Of a stretch of DNA of 64,000 bases, positions 2,926 through 60,702 are shown piece after piece. Numbering within the stretch: position 1 is the stretch's first letter; the number at the start of each line of letters is the position of its first letter. The stretch covers positions 62,001 to 126,000 of the forward strand of contig CALUXF010000001.1 of the NCBI GenBank assembly GCA_944324655.1, given 5' to 3'. The notes under the pieces were generated by a model. It was not told where the DNA came from, ran no database searches, and was given only the letters and a program-made list of their open reading frames with translations. Origin of the DNA: Candidatus Avelusimicrobium aviculae. GTDB lineage: Bacteria > Elusimicrobiota > Elusimicrobia > Elusimicrobiales > Elusimicrobiaceae. The position numbers and the translations under genes were made by a program.

Positions 2926-4877
2926 TGAAAAACAAAAACACAAATAACCGCAGAATTGTTTCCGTGGGCCAGATTATGGTCTGGATAGTTATTTTTGCGG
3001 CGGCCGTATTCTTTTTTAACAATCCGGGGGAAAAACCTTCCATATTGGATTATTCGGAGTTTAAACAAAAAGTGGCTTTGGGGGAAGTGTCTGACTTAAC
3101 GGTGGCCCCCGGCGTAATCAGCGGTTTGTATAAAAACGAAAAGGGAGACTTCTCCAAATTCAAAACCGTTCGTATGGAAGACCCCAAACTGGTGGAGGAA
3201 CTTTCCGCCGGTAAAATTAAATTCAAGGCCGAGCAGGACAACAGCTGGCTGAGCAATATTTTATTTAACATTTTATGGATTGTGCTGTTGATCGGTTTCT
3301 GGTGGTTTGTTTTTATCCGTCCGCAAAGAAGCGACGGAAAAAGCGCCATGAATTTTGCCCGCAGCAAAGCCAAAATGCAGGATCCTTCCCAGCAAACCGT
3401 TACATTTAAAGACGTGGCCGGCTGTGAAGAAGCCAAAGAAGAGCTGGAAGACGTTATCAAATTTTTAAAAAATCCCAAAAAATTCCAAAAATTGGGGGGC
3501 AAACTGCCCAAGGGCGTGCTTTTGTACGGCGCACCCGGTACGGGTAAAACGCTGTTGGCTAAAGCCGTAGCCGGGGAAGCGGGCGTGGCGTTTTTCTCAG
3601 CCTCCGCCTCTGAATTTGTGGAAATGTTCGTGGGTGTGGGCGCTGCGCGCGTGCGCGATTTGTTTGACCAAGCCAAAAAGAACTCCCCCGCCATTATTTT
3701 TATTGACGAGCTGGACGCCGTGGGCCGCCGGCGTTTTGCCGGTATCGGCGGCGGGCATGACGAGCGCGAACAAACCCTCAACCAGCTGCTTATTGAGTTG
3801 GACGGTTTTGAAAGCAAGCAAGGCATTATTTTGATGGCTTCCACTAACCGCCCGGACGTGTTGGACCCGGCCCTCATCCGCCCCGGCCGTTTTGACCGGC
3901 ACATTTCCGTGCCCGCGCCGGATTTAAAAGGGCGTGAAGAAATTTTGGGGGTGCACGCCAAGAAAGTGAAACTTGCCAAAGATGTGGATTTAAAAACCAT
4001 TGCCAAAGGCACGCCCGGTTTTGTGGGGGCGGATTTGGCCAACGTCATTAACGAGGCCGCCATTTTGGCCGCCCGCGCCGATAAAGACGCCGTGGACCGC
4101 GCGGACTTGGACGAAGCGGTGGAACGCGTCATAGCCGGCCCGCAAAAGAAAAGCCGCATCATTTCTAAAAAAGAACAGCAAATTATTGCCGCGCACGAAG
4201 TGGGCCACACTGTGGTGGCGCGCTTAACCAATCATTCTGACCCGGTTCATAAAGTAACCATTATCCCCCGGGGGCAGGCGTTGGGGTATACGCTGCAGCT
4301 GCCGCTGGAAGACAAGTTCTTAACCAGCAAATCTGAAATTTTGGACAAGATTTGCATTCTGCTGGCCGGCCGCGCGGCGGAGCAAATTGTGTTTGGAGAG
4401 ATTACCTCCGGCGCCAGCGATGACCTGAACAAAGCCACCGCTTACGCGCGCAAAATGGTGATGGAGCTGGGCATGAGTGATAAAATAGGCCCTATCGCCC
4501 TGCCTAACGGAGACGACGGGGAAGTGTTTTTGGGGAGAGACTTGTCCCGCCATAAAGTGTATTCGGAAGAAATGGCCCGCAGCATTGATGCGGAAATTGT
4601 GGATTTGATTAAATCGTCTTATGAACGCGCGCAGGAAATTATTTTAAGCAACCGCGCCGCGTTTGATAAATTGGTGCAGACGCTGCTTGAAAAAGAAGTG
4701 GTGGAAGCGCCGGAAATAGACGTTATTTTGGGCTTGAAACCCGCTGTGCAGGAAGAACCCCCGCAGGAAAAAGAGGCTTCTTCTTCCGGCAAGCCCGCGC
4801 AGGACGAACCGCAGGAAGAGCAACCGAAGGCGCCGAAAGCTGTGCAGCCGGAGGCTAAACAGGCGGAGCTTTTCTAA
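2925..4877 (+). CDS. ftsH: ATP-dependent zinc metalloprotease FtsH
   Basis: Membrane-anchored AAA+ protease that degrades misfolded membrane proteins and regulatory proteins. At 650 residues it has the family length. TM1 is near residues 12-30 and TM2 near 110-130, with a small periplasmic domain between. Walker A is GAPGTGKT at 202-209, followed by the [13 protein letters not shown] pore region and the SRH ([11 protein letters not shown]). The zinc motif is HEVGH at 424-428. The C-terminus is a Pro/Glu/Lys/Ala-rich tail of about 50 residues, longer than in many homologues and probably disordered. It follows hpt with overlapping stop and start. Confidence 0.97.
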
Positions 4878-27389: not shown

Positions 27390-27458
27390 TAGGGCCTATA
27401 CAAAAGGTAGGCCCAAGGGCCCTGGTCCCCTGCGGCGGGGTTTTGTATGCTAATAAAT
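27390..27458 (+). promoter_or_regulatory. Shared upstream module, copy A
   Basis: Half-site TAGGGCC (27390) and core TAGGCCCAAGGGCCCTG (27408-27424), then GGTTTT (27439-27444) and -10-like TATGCT (27446-27451), seven bases before the ATG. The same core and spacing occur upstream of the genes at 57644 and 59248. There is no Shine-Dalgarno. It is probably an activator or alternative-sigma promoter, but the factor is unknown. Confidence 0.6.
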
Positions 27459-28058
27459 ATGAAGAAAGTGATTTTACTGGCTGTTTTATTCTTGTCCTTT
27501 ACAGTTCCTTCTTTCGCCCAAGGCTATCCTCAATGGGTTTATTACCTTTGGCAAGTAGATCAAGAACTCTACCCCGCCGGGCTTTTGGCGAATTGGTATG
27601 ACGCCCGCCACAAAAAAGAAGAAACCTACATTTCTATTTGTTATCATGATTTTATGATGCCGGAAAGTAAGTTTGTGAAGGCGGTGAAAGAGATTTATGG
27701 TGAAAGGGCGGATAACCAGCTTACGTCTTTATACGCTTTAATAAAAGGGCGCAGGGAGTGGCTGCAGCTGGAAACCAATAGCAATAAACTGTTTGCCCCA
27801 TATGCGGTGGCTGCCGGCAACCCGATGGATTTATCCACTATGAGTGAAGAGACTTTTTTAAGGCTGCGCGCTATGTTAAAGTTGGATTTTGACCATAAGA
27901 GCCGGTTTGCCGATAAAGTGGAACGCCGCGGAAATACTGTTTATGTATGGTTTCGGGACTGGACGACGGAGGACCGTATTATCCGGTTAGGCTTTGAGGT
28001 AAAAGAAAAAATATTGGATATTTGCCTGAACGATTGTGAACACGACCCTTTTAATTAA
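27459..28058 (+). CDS. Exported protein, unknown
   Basis: 199 residues, not recognised. Signal peptide of about 20 residues ending SFAQG. The mature part is soluble and rich in aromatics and charge (YPQWVYYLWQVDQELYPAGL), with two late Cys (ICLNDCEHD) that could form a disulfide. The start at 27459 fits both the signal peptide and the -10 element seven bases upstream. It shares its upstream module with the tandem exported genes near 58000-60000, but not obvious protein similarity. It ends at the terminator at 28073. Confidence 0.7.
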   Translation: MKKVILLAVLFLSFTVPSFAQGYPQWVYYLWQVDQELYPAGLLANWYDARHKKEETYISICYHDFMMPESKFVKAVKEIYGERADNQLTSLYALIKGRREWLQLETNSNKLFAPYAVAAGNPMDLSTMSEETFLRLRAMLKLDFDHKSRFADKVERRGNTVYVWFRDWTTEDRIIRLGFEVKEKILDICLNDCEHDPFN

Positions 28059-50980: not shown

Positions 50981-51466
50981 ATGAATTTTGCCTCTTTATA
51001 CCAAGAATTTTTTAAGCCTGTGTTTGCTTATATTTTGTGCCGCGTGGGCCAGCGTGCGCTGGCGGAGGATCTGGCCGCCTGCGCTTGGCGCAAAGCGTAT
51101 GAAAAAATGGCTTTGTTTGACTCGCAAAAAGGTACGTTTCGCCAATGGATATTTACCATTGCCCGTAACGAAATTAATATGTATTACCGTTTGTATTACG
51201 TGCGTAAATTTTTATCTTTAACCGGGTTTGAGGAAAACGCCTTTTTGTCCCTTCCGCAAGAAGACGCTTTACAGCAAGAGGACACACGGGTTTTGCTTAA
51301 CGCCATGTCCATATTAAACCGGAAAGAAAGAGATTTGGTTGCCTTAAAGTTTTATTCCGGCATGAACAACCGGGAAATTGCCCGCCAAACCGGGCTGAGT
51401 GAAAGCAATGTGGGTACCATTTTGCACCGCAGTATCGCCAAGCTGCGCAAGGAGATGAATGTATGA
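50981..51466 (+). CDS. ECF-type RNA polymerase sigma factor
   Basis: 161 residues. Region 2 (FFKPVFAYILCRVG, GTFRQWIFTIARNEINMYYR) and region 4 (LNRKERDLVALKFYSGMNNREIARQTGLSESNVGT, with helix-turn-helix) without region 3: an ECF factor. Directly followed by a membrane protein gene overlapping by four bases that is the probable anti-sigma factor. AGGAAG site upstream. Target promoters are unknown. Confidence 0.9.
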   Translation: MNFASLYQEFFKPVFAYILCRVGQRALAEDLAACAWRKAYEKMALFDSQKGTFRQWIFTIARNEINMYYRLYYVRKFLSLTGFEENAFLSLPQEDALQQEDTRVLLNAMSILNRKERDLVALKFYSGMNNREIARQTGLSESNVGTILHRSIAKLRKEMNV

Positions 51467-57570: not shown

Positions 57571-57643
57571 GGGGCTAAAAAACGGTTAAGTATAGGACTT
57601 TGGGCCCTGTCTCTAATTGCGGTTTTTATTGTATTTTATTGGT
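57571..57643 (+). promoter_or_regulatory. Shared upstream module, copy B
   Basis: GGGGCTAAAAAAC (57571), core TAGGACTTTGGGCCCTG (57593-57609), GGTTTT (57621-57626), -10-like TATTTT (57632-57637), six bases, ATG at 57644. Same core and spacing as copies A and C. No Shine-Dalgarno. Confidence 0.6.
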
Positions 57644-59089
57644 ATGATAAAAAAACTATTTTATGGCATCTTATTTGTTTTGTTTGTTTCTTCCCTCTCT
57701 TTTGCCCAAAAGACTGTTATAAAATCTTTTTGCAAGAACGCGGAATCTTTTGGCGTCAAAGCGACGGAAAGAGACCTCCAAGAATTGGAAAAACGTTTTA
57801 TTTTGCTAAGGAAGGATCCTTCCCCCACCAGTTTGCAAAGAGTTTCCGTTCTGTTAAAAAACAGGGTGGAACCCGGCCCCCAGCGTGATGAGCTGGAGTC
57901 TTTGTTTTCGTCCGGTAAATATCTGCAGGCGCAGGCCAAGGTGCATATGTGGCTGACGGGGGAGGATTTGTTTAATCCGCCTGCTCCCGTTAAACCTAAA
58001 AGCCGCCGCGAAGAATTTGCCAGCTGCTTTTTGGGTTTTGACCTTTCTAAAGGCGCGGAGTTACAAAAAGCGGTTTCTTTTTTACATGCGGGCTGGCAGA
58101 CAAGATTGCTAAACGTAAAAGAATACCGCAATATTATATGGTCTCTTTCCCGTATGGACTTTCGCAACGCGGAATACATTTTAACCCGTAATGACAAAGC
58201 CGTTTTGCACCATACGATTCCGCTCTCCCAATACGAAAGGGCTCAGCTTCAGCTTGCCAAAATGTATGAATGGGAAGATCTAAATCCACGTCCGATGGAA
58301 ATACCCCCTTTGGACAATGTGTCCCGCAGAGAGGCTGTCCGCCAGGTATTGGGGCCATTATCGGGGGGAAAGAAGAAGCCCTTGTCTGTCCACCAAGCCT
58401 ATTATGAACAGCTTCCGCCTTGGCGTCAGCAAGAATTGGACGCGCAAATAGACCAAATGGAAAAAATAATTGCCCAGCGTGCGTTGCAAGCCAGCTCTTC
58501 CAACAAGGGGCATATGGATAAACGGCGTTTTTCTTTGGCTTTGGCCAGTTTTGTAACCGGGAAGGTCAATTCTTCTTGGACGGTGATGCAGGTGCTTTAC
58601 AGCCCTTATGTGTCCGCGTCGGCCCGCCTTGCGGCTGAGAAAGCCTTGTCCAGCAACCTTTCTTATTGGGAAGGAGTAAAAGCAGGGGAATATTTATATG
58701 AGGATTATTCTAAAAATTTAGAAAAAAATTTAGTAGTGTCTCCAGAAATGCAACGTATGCAGGAACTTTTTCAGGAATTAGATAATTATTTATCTAAAAA
58801 CCGCCAATGGCCGCAGGAGGGAGTTGACTTATTTCCCCGTTTGCAGGAACTGGAAACTGCTCCCGGGCTGGAAGGGGCCAAACTGATGATAAAACGCTTG
58901 AAACAGCAGCAACAGAAATTGCCGGAAAAAGAAATATATATTTCCCTTCAAAATTATATTGCCCAGCATGGCAAGCTTCCGCCGTCTACCTCTTCGCTGT
59001 ACCATGCGATTATGCGCTATAAAAAAATACCCGGGCCGTATCGGGAGAGTTTCCGTAAGCTTTTTGAAAAATATCATTATAAAAAATAG
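57644..59089 (+). CDS. Exported repeat-type protein, unknown (paralogue 1)
   Basis: 481 residues, not recognised. Signal peptide ending SFAQK. The rest is helical and charged, with no transmembrane segments after the signal. It shares block order with the next gene: LQELEKRFILLRK, PQRDELESLFSSG, KEYRNIIWSLSRMDFRNAE, QQELDAQIDQMEK, LYSPYVSASARLAAE and a C-terminal SSLYHAIMRYKKIPGPYRE. The repeated helical pattern may form a solenoid. Module B drives it; a terminator follows. Confidence 0.75.
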   Translation: MIKKLFYGILFVLFVSSLSFAQKTVIKSFCKNAESFGVKATERDLQELEKRFILLRKDPSPTSLQRVSVLLKNRVEPGPQRDELESLFSSGKYLQAQAKVHMWLTGEDLFNPPAPVKPKSRREEFASCFLGFDLSKGAELQKAVSFLHAGWQTRLLNVKEYRNIIWSLSRMDFRNAEYILTRNDKAVLHHTIPLSQYERAQLQLAKMYEWEDLNPRPMEIPPLDNVSRREAVRQVLGPLSGGKKKPLSVHQAYYEQLPPWRQQELDAQIDQMEKIIAQRALQASSSNKGHMDKRRFSLALASFVTGKVNSSWTVMQVLYSPYVSASARLAAEKALSSNLSYWEGVKAGEYLYEDYSKNLEKNLVVSPEMQRMQELFQELDNYLSKNRQWPQEGVDLFPRLQELETAPGLEGAKLMIKRLKQQQQKLPEKEIYISLQNYIAQHGKLPPSTSSLYHAIMRYKKIPGPYRESFRKLFEKYHYKK

Positions 59090-59104
59090 GTTTTATGCCT
59101 CTTT

Positions 59105-59129
59105 GCCCCCGTTTAAACGGGGGCTTTTT
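59105..59129 (+). terminator. Rho-independent terminator
   Basis: Palindromic GCCCCCGTTTAAACGGGGGC followed by T, after paralogue 1. Confidence 0.85.
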
Positions 59130-59156
59130 AATGGAATTATTCCATAAATAAACGCT

Positions 59157-59247
59157 AGGGCCTTGCCAGAACATAGGTCTAAAAAACACGGGAGTTAGGT
59201 CTTAAGGCCCTGGCTGGGAGTATTGGGGTTTTGATATCTTAAAAATA
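59157..59247 (+). promoter_or_regulatory. Shared upstream module, copy C
   Basis: Half-sites TAGGGCC (59157) and TAGGTCTAAAAAAC (59174), core TAGGTCTTAAGGCCCTG (59196-59212), GGTTTT (59227-59232), -10-like TATCTT (59235-59240), seven bases, ATG at 59248. No Shine-Dalgarno. Confidence 0.6.
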
Positions 59248-60702
59248 ATGAAGAAACTATCTTGCTTTATTTTGTTATTGCTGGTTGTATGCCCGGCTGT
59301 TTTTGCTCAGAAGCCGGTAATTGGTGCGGTTAGCAAGAAACTGGCCTCTAGCGGTGTAAAAGCCGCCGAAAAAGACCTTTTGGAATTGGAAAAGCGGTTT
59401 GCTAAATTAAGAGGATTTCGTTCCTGCAAAGATTTACAGCGGGTTTCTTTTTTGTTGTTAAAACGTTTTCCCGCCAGCCCCCAGCGTGATGAGTTGGACG
59501 CTCTTTTCCGTTCCGGCCGGTACGCGCAGGCCCAGTCTTTGGTGCATGGCTGGCTGACGGGGGAAGAACTCGCTTTGTCGGAAAGTTCTCCTACCAAAGA
59601 CATCTCTTCCCGCAGGGATTTAAACCAACAATTTCTGAAATTTGATTTATATGACGGGGCGGACCTTCAACAAGCGGTTGCTTTCTTAAACGGCGCCGTA
59701 CAGGAAAAACTGCTTACACAAAACGAGTACCGCAATATTTTATGGTCCCTTTCCAAGCTGGATTTTTCAAACGCCAGGAATATTCTGGCCCGTAATGATA
59801 AAGCTTTCCTTTATCAACGCATTTCAACTGTGCAGCATAATAAAAATTTAACGGTTCTTTCCCAAATGTATAAATGGAATGATTTGCATCCGGAGCAAAT
59901 GCTCCTTCCCGCGCCGGAAGAAACCGTCCGCCGGGAGGCCGTCCGGCGGGTAATGGGTTCCGTATATGGAGGCCCCCAGCAGCCGCTGGAGGTTTATAAA
60001 CAACATTATGATAAACTTTTTCCTTGGCAACAGCAAGAAATATCCCAGCGTATTGACCAGATGGAAAAAACGCTTTCCTCTCGTTTGGCGCAACTTAGCG
60101 TAAAGAGAAAAAAGGAAGGCGTGAGATCTGGTTTTGGGCAATCTTTTAAGGCTTTTGCCGAAGGCGAAGCTTTTATTTCCTGGAAAACAATAAAAATATT
60201 GTACAGCCCGTATGTGTCCGCCGGTGCCCGGCGCGAAGCCGAACAGGCGCTTGGGGAAAATGTTTCCGCGGCAGAAAAGTACCAGGCGGGGTTGGCGTTA
60301 TATGACCACTATGCTTCCAATTTGGCAAAGGGCATAATGGCGGGAGGCGAAACCCACGCGCGGGTATTAAGTGTTTTGGAAGAATTAAAAACTTATTTGC
60401 TTCAAACCCGCCAATGGCCGCAAGAAGGGTCTGCCTTATACTCCAAGCTCAGAACCCTGCAGGATAACCCGGATTTTCCAGCTGCCAACCTTCTTGTGCG
60501 GCGTTTACAGCAGCAACAGGAGTCTTTGCCTGAAAAAGGCCTTTATGCCAGATTGTTGGATTATATATCCCGTTACGGTAAGTATCCTCCTTCCTCTTCT
60601 TCGCTGTATAGTGTATCCAATTACTATAAAACAATTCCCGGCCCATACCGTGATAAATTTCAGGAATTGTTCCAAAAGTATCACCGGAACAAACCCAAGT
60701 AA
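59248..60702 (+). CDS. Exported repeat-type protein, unknown (paralogue 2)
   Basis: 484 residues, not recognised. Signal peptide ending VFAQK. It matches the preceding gene along its whole length (LLELEKRFAKLRG, PQRDELDALFRSG, NEYRNILWSLSKLDFSNA, QQEISQRIDQMEK, LYSPYVSAGARREAE, IPGPYRDKFQ), so the pair arose by tandem duplication. No enzyme motif is visible. Module C and a terminator frame it as its own unit. Confidence 0.75.
   Translation: MKKLSCFILLLLVVCPAVFAQKPVIGAVSKKLASSGVKAAEKDLLELEKRFAKLRGFRSCKDLQRVSFLLLKRFPASPQRDELDALFRSGRYAQAQSLVHGWLTGEELALSESSPTKDISSRRDLNQQFLKFDLYDGADLQQAVAFLNGAVQEKLLTQNEYRNILWSLSKLDFSNARNILARNDKAFLYQRISTVQHNKNLTVLSQMYKWNDLHPEQMLLPAPEETVRREAVRRVMGSVYGGPQQPLEVYKQHYDKLFPWQQQEISQRIDQMEKTLSSRLAQLSVKRKKEGVRSGFGQSFKAFAEGEAFISWKTIKILYSPYVSAGARREAEQALGENVSAAEKYQAGLALYDHYASNLAKGIMAGGETHARVLSVLEELKTYLLQTRQWPQEGSALYSKLRTLQDNPDFPAANLLVRRLQQQQESLPEKGLYARLLDYISRYGKYPPSSSSLYSVSNYYKTIPGPYRDKFQELFQKYHRNKPK

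What the first reader, a model, noticed from the sequence alone, without database searches (positions are those of the whole stretch)
57571..59248. Conserved upstream module TAGG-N6-GGCCCTG before exported-protein genes
Copies at 57593-57609 and 59196-59212 (and a third at 27408-27424) share TAGG, exactly six bases, then GGCCCTG. Each is followed by GGTTTT and a TANNNT hexamer that begins 21-22 bases after the core and ends 6-7 bases before the ATG. Copies B and C also share an upstream CTAAAAAAC 17-18 bases before the core; copies A and C have additional TAGGGCC half-sites. The core is an imperfect inverted repeat and sits where an activator would bind just upstream of the -35 position. All three target genes encode exported proteins of unknown family. 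This points to an undescribed regulon.
Basis: partly seen in the sequence, partly recalled or inferred. Interest (0 to 1): 0.8.

Follow-up and report, generated by a model that had tools for sequence, protein, structure and literature searches.

The report
Class-wide promoter switch for exported proteins
A short DNA sign found in front of about 30 genes of an uncultured gut bacterium, and across its whole class, is almost certainly where an activator protein switches on a set of mostly uncharacterised secreted proteins, and the evidence points to one particular response regulator as that switch.

Summary
In the 1.62-Mb genome TAGG-N6-GGCCCTG occurs 13 times (0 for the reversed control). The underlying element is a 17-bp dyad, TAGGNCYWWWRGNCCTA. 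A -10 hexamer starts 21±1 bp after it, so it is centred at about -42, where a class II activator sits. A second copy often lies about 24 bp upstream. In this genome 26 of 29 downstream genes encode predicted signal peptides, against 13 of 51 other window genes (p = 2e-8). About a third of promoters place the ATG where transcription should begin, which predicts leaderless mRNAs; all three window copies do this.

Across 341 genomes of the phylum the composite module occurs in 155 and in none of 127 genomes from families outside one group of related families. Best candidate regulator: a NarL-type response regulator beside a Tad-pilus cluster. Its phylogenetic profile matches the motif's. Its recognition helix is invariant in 123 orthologues and carries the three DosR base-contacting residues. 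The genome's other clear NarL-type regulator and the CRP/FNR family are excluded as common regulators. No binding or expression data exist. I found no description of the regulon in the open-access papers searched.

The parts
57593..57609 (+). activator site, copy B (TAGGACTTTGGGCCCTG)
   Evidence: PWM 23.7 of 28.3
   Evidence: read; group statistic for upstream sites
57632..57637 (+). -10 hexamer TATTTT, 22 bp after the core
   Evidence: spacing distribution
57644..59089 (+). target gene, 481 aa exported protein, no Pfam or NCBIfam family; ATG 6 nt after -10 (predicted leaderless)
59196..59212 (+). activator site, copy C (TAGGTCTTAAGGCCCTG)
   Evidence: PWM 26.4
59174..59190 (+). second site 22 bp upstream (TAGGTCTAAAAAACACG); a further TAGGGCC half-site at 59156-59162
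   Evidence: read; group statistic
59235..59240 (+). -10 hexamer TATCTT, 22 bp after the core
59248..60702 (+). target gene, 484 aa exported protein, paralogue of 57644-59089; predicted leaderless
27408..27424 (+). activator site, copy A (TAGGCCCAAGGGCCCTG)
   Evidence: PWM 24.3
27390..27398 (+). additional upstream half-site TAGGGCCTA
   Evidence: read
27446..27451 (+). -10 hexamer TATGCT, 21 bp after the core
27459..28058 (+). target gene (the listed ORF starts at 27447, inside the -10; likely start ATG 27459), exported protein, no known family; predicted leaderless

Best explanation
The motif is the operator of a transcription activator that controls a secretome regulon of about 30 promoters in this Elusimicrobiaceae genome, and of smaller or larger regulons in related families. 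An activator dimer binds the 17-bp dyad TAGGNCYWWWRGNCCTA centred near -42, overlapping the -35 region; in about a third of promoters a second dimer binds about 24 bp upstream. It recruits RNA polymerase to an otherwise weak promoter (TATAAT-like -10, poor -35), as class II activators do. The most likely activator is the NarL/DosR-type response regulator (RR2) encoded at C4:51166-51852 of the same genome, together with two adjacent sensor kinases (one dCache-HAMP, one receiver-kinase hybrid) and next to Tad-pilus genes. Shown by sequence: motif, spacing, pairing, link to signal-peptide genes, class-wide conservation, matching profile and conserved recognition helix. Inferred: that this protein binds, that it activates, that many mRNAs are leaderless, and what signal is sensed.
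For: Motif 13 vs 0 control. Core plus -10: 155 of 341 genomes hit, with only a handful of control hits. -10 offset 21±1 in 108 of 117 promoters with a scorable hexamer; information peaks at +38/+39/+43 from core start. 26 of 29 own targets have signal peptides vs 13 of 51 background, p = 2e-8. Second site at -27 to -21 in 38 of 139 vs 0.09 shuffled, and a few more at -47/-48. Regulator RR2: orthologues in 203 genomes, motif in 147 of those vs 8 of 138 without it; 0 of 127 genomes in families f3-f8 and f16-f29 have the motif. RR1 is restricted to the own family. CRP family absent from three motif-bearing genomes. RR2 helix [VI]KT[IV]KNH in 123 of 123 orthologues, matching DosR Lys179/Lys182/Asn183 (PMC4082495). 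Conserved kinase-RR2-Tad neighbourhood.
Against: The link to RR2 is correlative, and the profile largely reflects a single clade. No copy of the motif lies in the RR2/Tad locus. Family f11 (4 genomes) and f12 (2 genomes) have RR2 but no hit to the strict pattern. G060 (93% complete) lacks any GerE-type protein yet has 2 hits. The DosR box is an even-length dyad and this one is odd-length. Other transcription-factor families were not surveyed. Signal peptides were called by a simple heuristic.
Confidence: 0.65

Rival explanations
1. Same operator and activator logic, but the binding protein belongs to another transcription-factor family (for example TetR, LysR or MarR type) that is also conserved in the clade.
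For: Only the GerE and CRP families were surveyed. The profile match of RR2 is mostly one clade. The RR2 locus has no motif.
Against: RR2 has the expected recognition residues, invariant across families, and the site position fits LuxR/NarL-type class II activators.
Confidence: 0.27
2. The site is a repressor operator overlapping the -35 region; the exported-protein genes are kept off until a signal releases it.
For: The dyad overlaps the -35 position; paired palindromes are common for repressors.
Against: The -35 hexamer at the 17-bp-spacer position is poor (113 of 139 promoters match TTGACA at 3 or fewer positions), which suggests the promoter needs help. Spacing to the -10 is held at 21±1 bp, which repressors do not require.
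Confidence: 0.1
3. The block is a promoter element read directly by an alternative sigma factor.
For: Fixed distance from the -10; an ECF-type sigma gene lies in the window at 50981-51466.
Against: The -10 is an ordinary TATAAT type. A 17-bp dyad present as pairs in either orientation, 24 bp apart, is unlike a sigma -35 element.
Confidence: 0.04
4. The second NarL-type regulator RR1 (C2:15311-15955) is the common regulator.
For: It is a NarL-type response regulator present in nearly every genome of the genus.
Against: It is missing from the f2 and f15 genomes that carry the motif, and it has N, H, V at the three DosR contact positions (sequence).
Confidence: 0.03

Closest known systems
DosR/DevR regulon of Mycobacterium tuberculosis
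   Same: NarL-family response regulator; GG-rich dyad (TTSGGGACTWWAGTCCCSAA, a sequence printed in PMC2275270) controlling about 50 genes; the three base-contacting residues Lys179, Lys182, Asn183 are identical in RR2; often more than one box per promoter (from memory).
   Different: The site here is an odd-length dyad with one more central base and a different flank; targets are exported proteins, not a hypoxia set; RR2 is paired with HisKA-type kinases beside a Tad cluster, not haem sensors.
GerE of Bacillus subtilis
   Same: Recognition helix KTVRNH resembles KTIKNH; its reported half-site TRGGY (from memory, not confirmed here) resembles TAGGYC.
   Different: GerE lacks a receiver domain and acts in sporulation (from memory).
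LuxR-type and CRP/FNR class II activators
   Same: Operator centred near -42, overlapping the -35 region (from memory).
   Different: CRP/FNR proteins are absent from three motif-bearing genomes; RR2 has a phospho-receiver domain, not an autoinducer domain.
VraR/LiaR response regulators
   Same: Closest solved full-length relatives of RR2 (7ve6, 4gvp).
   Different: RR2 falls far below every NCBIfam equivalog cut-off listed; the recognition helix has KN where VraR has KT.

Membership tests
NarL/FixJ-type two-component regulator (RR2) | Receiver domain plus GerE-type HTH | tested here: met
   PF00072 E 2e-29, PF00196 E 1e-17
NarL/FixJ-type two-component regulator (RR2) | Cognate sensor kinase alongside | tested here: met
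   two kinases directly upstream, conserved in other families; that they phosphorylate RR2 is inferred
DosR-like regulon | DosR base-contacting residues Lys179, Lys182, Asn183 | tested here: met
   ungapped alignment, 123 of 123 orthologues
DosR-like regulon | 20-bp even-length GGGACT/AGTCCC dyad | tested here: not met
   site is 17 bp with a central base, AGGNC-N5-GNCCT; therefore not filed as a DosR box
DosR-like regulon | The regulator binds the site | not testable with these tools
   needs EMSA or footprint
Class II activator-dependent promoter | Operator centred near -41 to -43 at fixed distance from the -10 | tested here: met
   21±1 bp from core end to -10
Class II activator-dependent promoter | Weak -35 element | tested here: met
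Class II activator-dependent promoter | Activation in vivo | not testable with these tools
   no expression data
CRP/FNR regulon | CRP-type HTH protein in the genome | tested here: not met
   no PF13545 match in G000, G030, G111

The most novel reading that the evidence does not exclude
A single Tad-linked, phosphorylation-controlled regulator has commanded the secretome of a whole bacterial class. It acts through arrays of dimers about 24 bp apart, and at a third of its promoters it drives leaderless mRNAs, so that output would depend on leaderless translation as well as on the regulator.
Probability: 0.35. Interest if true: 0.75.

Novelty: new member of a known kind. Interest (0 to 1): 0.6.

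Why it matters
It gives a class of largely uncultured bacteria, with almost no known regulation, a concrete regulon: a site, promoter geometry, a target list of mostly unannotated exported proteins, and a named candidate regulator with kinases. That makes a first regulatory network for Elusimicrobia testable, suggests a link between adhesion-type (Tad) genes and secretion, and gives a sequence-only way to pick out exported proteins that work together in gut members.

Tried and rejected
Chance occurrence: rejected. Structured RNA: no Rfam match in the window, and the paired sites lie upstream of the promoter. GGTTTT and CTAAAAAAC as module parts: rejected. RR1 as common regulator: rejected. CRP/FNR: rejected. 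The window site at 4486 is inside a coding ORF and has no promoter context: treated as chance. A structure of the exported protein P0002 from two sequences was too poor to use (mean pLDDT 52.6, mostly helical), so no fold search was run. P0002 has no match on plasmids. Literature searches found nothing describing this motif. One Pfam call failed on wrong coordinates and was not repeated.

Full report
Observation. In the window alone the count is only moderately above chance. In the whole 1.62-Mb assembly the pattern TAGG-N6-GGCCCTG has 13 exact matches and its reversed control none. The looser dyad GGNCYWWWRGNCC has 35 places against 15, and RGGNCYWWWGGCCC has 29 against 6.

Anatomy. Aligning sites from own and related genomes gives a 17-bp dyad TAGGNCYWWWRGNCCTA whose downstream half is the better conserved (GGCCCT; part of that bias comes from the search pattern). 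A TANNNT hexamer starts 21 bp after it in 78 promoters, with 20 in 12 and 22 in 18, of 117 scored. With the -10 at -12 to -7 the dyad centre is near -42. The bases where a -35 would fall, at a 17-bp spacer, overlap the end of the dyad and match TTGACA poorly. A second dyad starts 22-26 bp upstream in 38 of 139 promoters against 0.09 after shuffling, and four lie at -47/-48, so the sites repeat at about 24 bp; the second dyad is found equally often in either orientation. In genome G030 some pairs are nearly perfect back-to-back inverted repeats. The window's CTAAAAAAC belongs to such a degenerate upstream site in copies B and C.

Targets. In the own genome a scan of the fetched stretches found 29 promoters with an ORF; 26 ORFs start with a signal-peptide-like segment, against 13 of 51 other window ORFs (Fisher p = 2e-8; simple heuristic). 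Most targets have no Pfam family. Exceptions are two trypsin-like proteins, an M20-peptidase-like protein, weak ChaN/TIKI-like matches and a zinc-ribbon protein. Targets fall into several small paralogous groups plus 59 singletons among 142, so the shared promoter is not simply inherited with one gene family.

Leaderless class. Start codons fall in two groups: 44 of 139 lie 31-37 bp after the core, that is mostly 6-7 nt after the -10, and 1 of these 44 has a Shine-Dalgarno-like stretch; of the other 95, 77 have one. The first group predicts mRNAs that begin at or next to the ATG. All three window genes belong to it. This is an inference from promoter geometry; no transcript data were available.

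Distribution. Over 341 genomes of the phylum the composite pattern occurs in 83 of 90 genomes of the own family, 45 of 59 of the sister family f2, 21 of 44 of f15 and a few in f9, f10, f13 and f14. It occurs in none of 21 genomes of f3-f8 and none of 106 genomes of f16-f29 (family counts added by hand from the table; they sum to the tool's 155 and 341). Targets outside the own family again mostly start with signal peptides (by eye). The closest named records for the candidate regulator are Elusimicrobiaceae, including Candidatus Avelusimicrobium; the genus of the window itself is inferred from this.

Regulator. GerE-type proteins in the genome: RR1 (C2:15311-15955), RR2 (C4:51166-51852) and a weak match that is an ECF sigma factor in the window. 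RR1 orthologues are confined to the own family. RR2 orthologues are present in 203 genomes by my cut-off of E < 1e-50; the motif is found in 147 of those and in 8 of the 138 others, and all 8 belong to f1 or f2, where gaps in draft genomes are a likely reason. The Fisher p of 6e-38 overstates the case because the genomes are related. RR2's recognition helix is VKT[IV]KNH in 122 orthologues and IKTIKNH in one. Lys, Lys and Asn fall, without gaps, on DosR Lys179, Lys182 and Asn183 (chain numbering), which contact DNA bases (PMC4082495); RR1 has Asn, His and Val there. CRP/FNR-type HTH proteins are missing in G000, G030 and G111. RR2 sits after a dCache-HAMP kinase and a receiver-kinase hybrid and before TadG/TadE-like genes; the order kinase, RR2, TadG-like recurs in other families.

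Mechanism. Best reading: signal to kinase(s) to RR2~P; RR2 dimers fill one or two dyads; the promoter-proximal dimer at -42 contacts RNA polymerase at the poor -35 and turns on exported-protein genes. The operator and activator geometry are strongly supported by sequence; the identity of the protein is moderately supported; activation, signal and leaderless initiation are inferred.

Novelty. The regulator type and class II geometry are known. The regulon, its site and its class-wide scope were not found described in the open-access library searched, which does not cover subscription journals.

Noticed in passing
window 50981-51466: ECF-type sigma factor gene (PF04542, PF08281) about 6 kb upstream of copies B and C; its own promoter targets were not looked for.
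   Followed up: no
promoters of 57644, 59248 and 27459; 44 of 139 promoters overall: ATG falls 6-7 nt after the -10 with no Shine-Dalgarno, predicting leaderless mRNAs, while most other targets of the same regulon have a Shine-Dalgarno.
   Followed up: partly
L155:1560-1571, L155:3753-3764, L154:1694-1705 (genome G030): Nearly perfect back-to-back inverted repeats of the dyad, 24 bp apart, in front of exported-protein genes.
   Followed up: partly
L160:541-1740: A target in genome G035 matches Gln_deamidase_2 (PF18626, E 5e-6), a glutaminase-type domain.
   Followed up: no
L191:3432-4910, L192, L193, L194: A target conserved across genus genomes with a shared spacer end AGATT-TACAAT; it clusters with the M20-peptidase-like target L113.
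   Followed up: partly
genome G060: 93% complete genome without any GerE-type protein but with 2 module hits.
   Followed up: no
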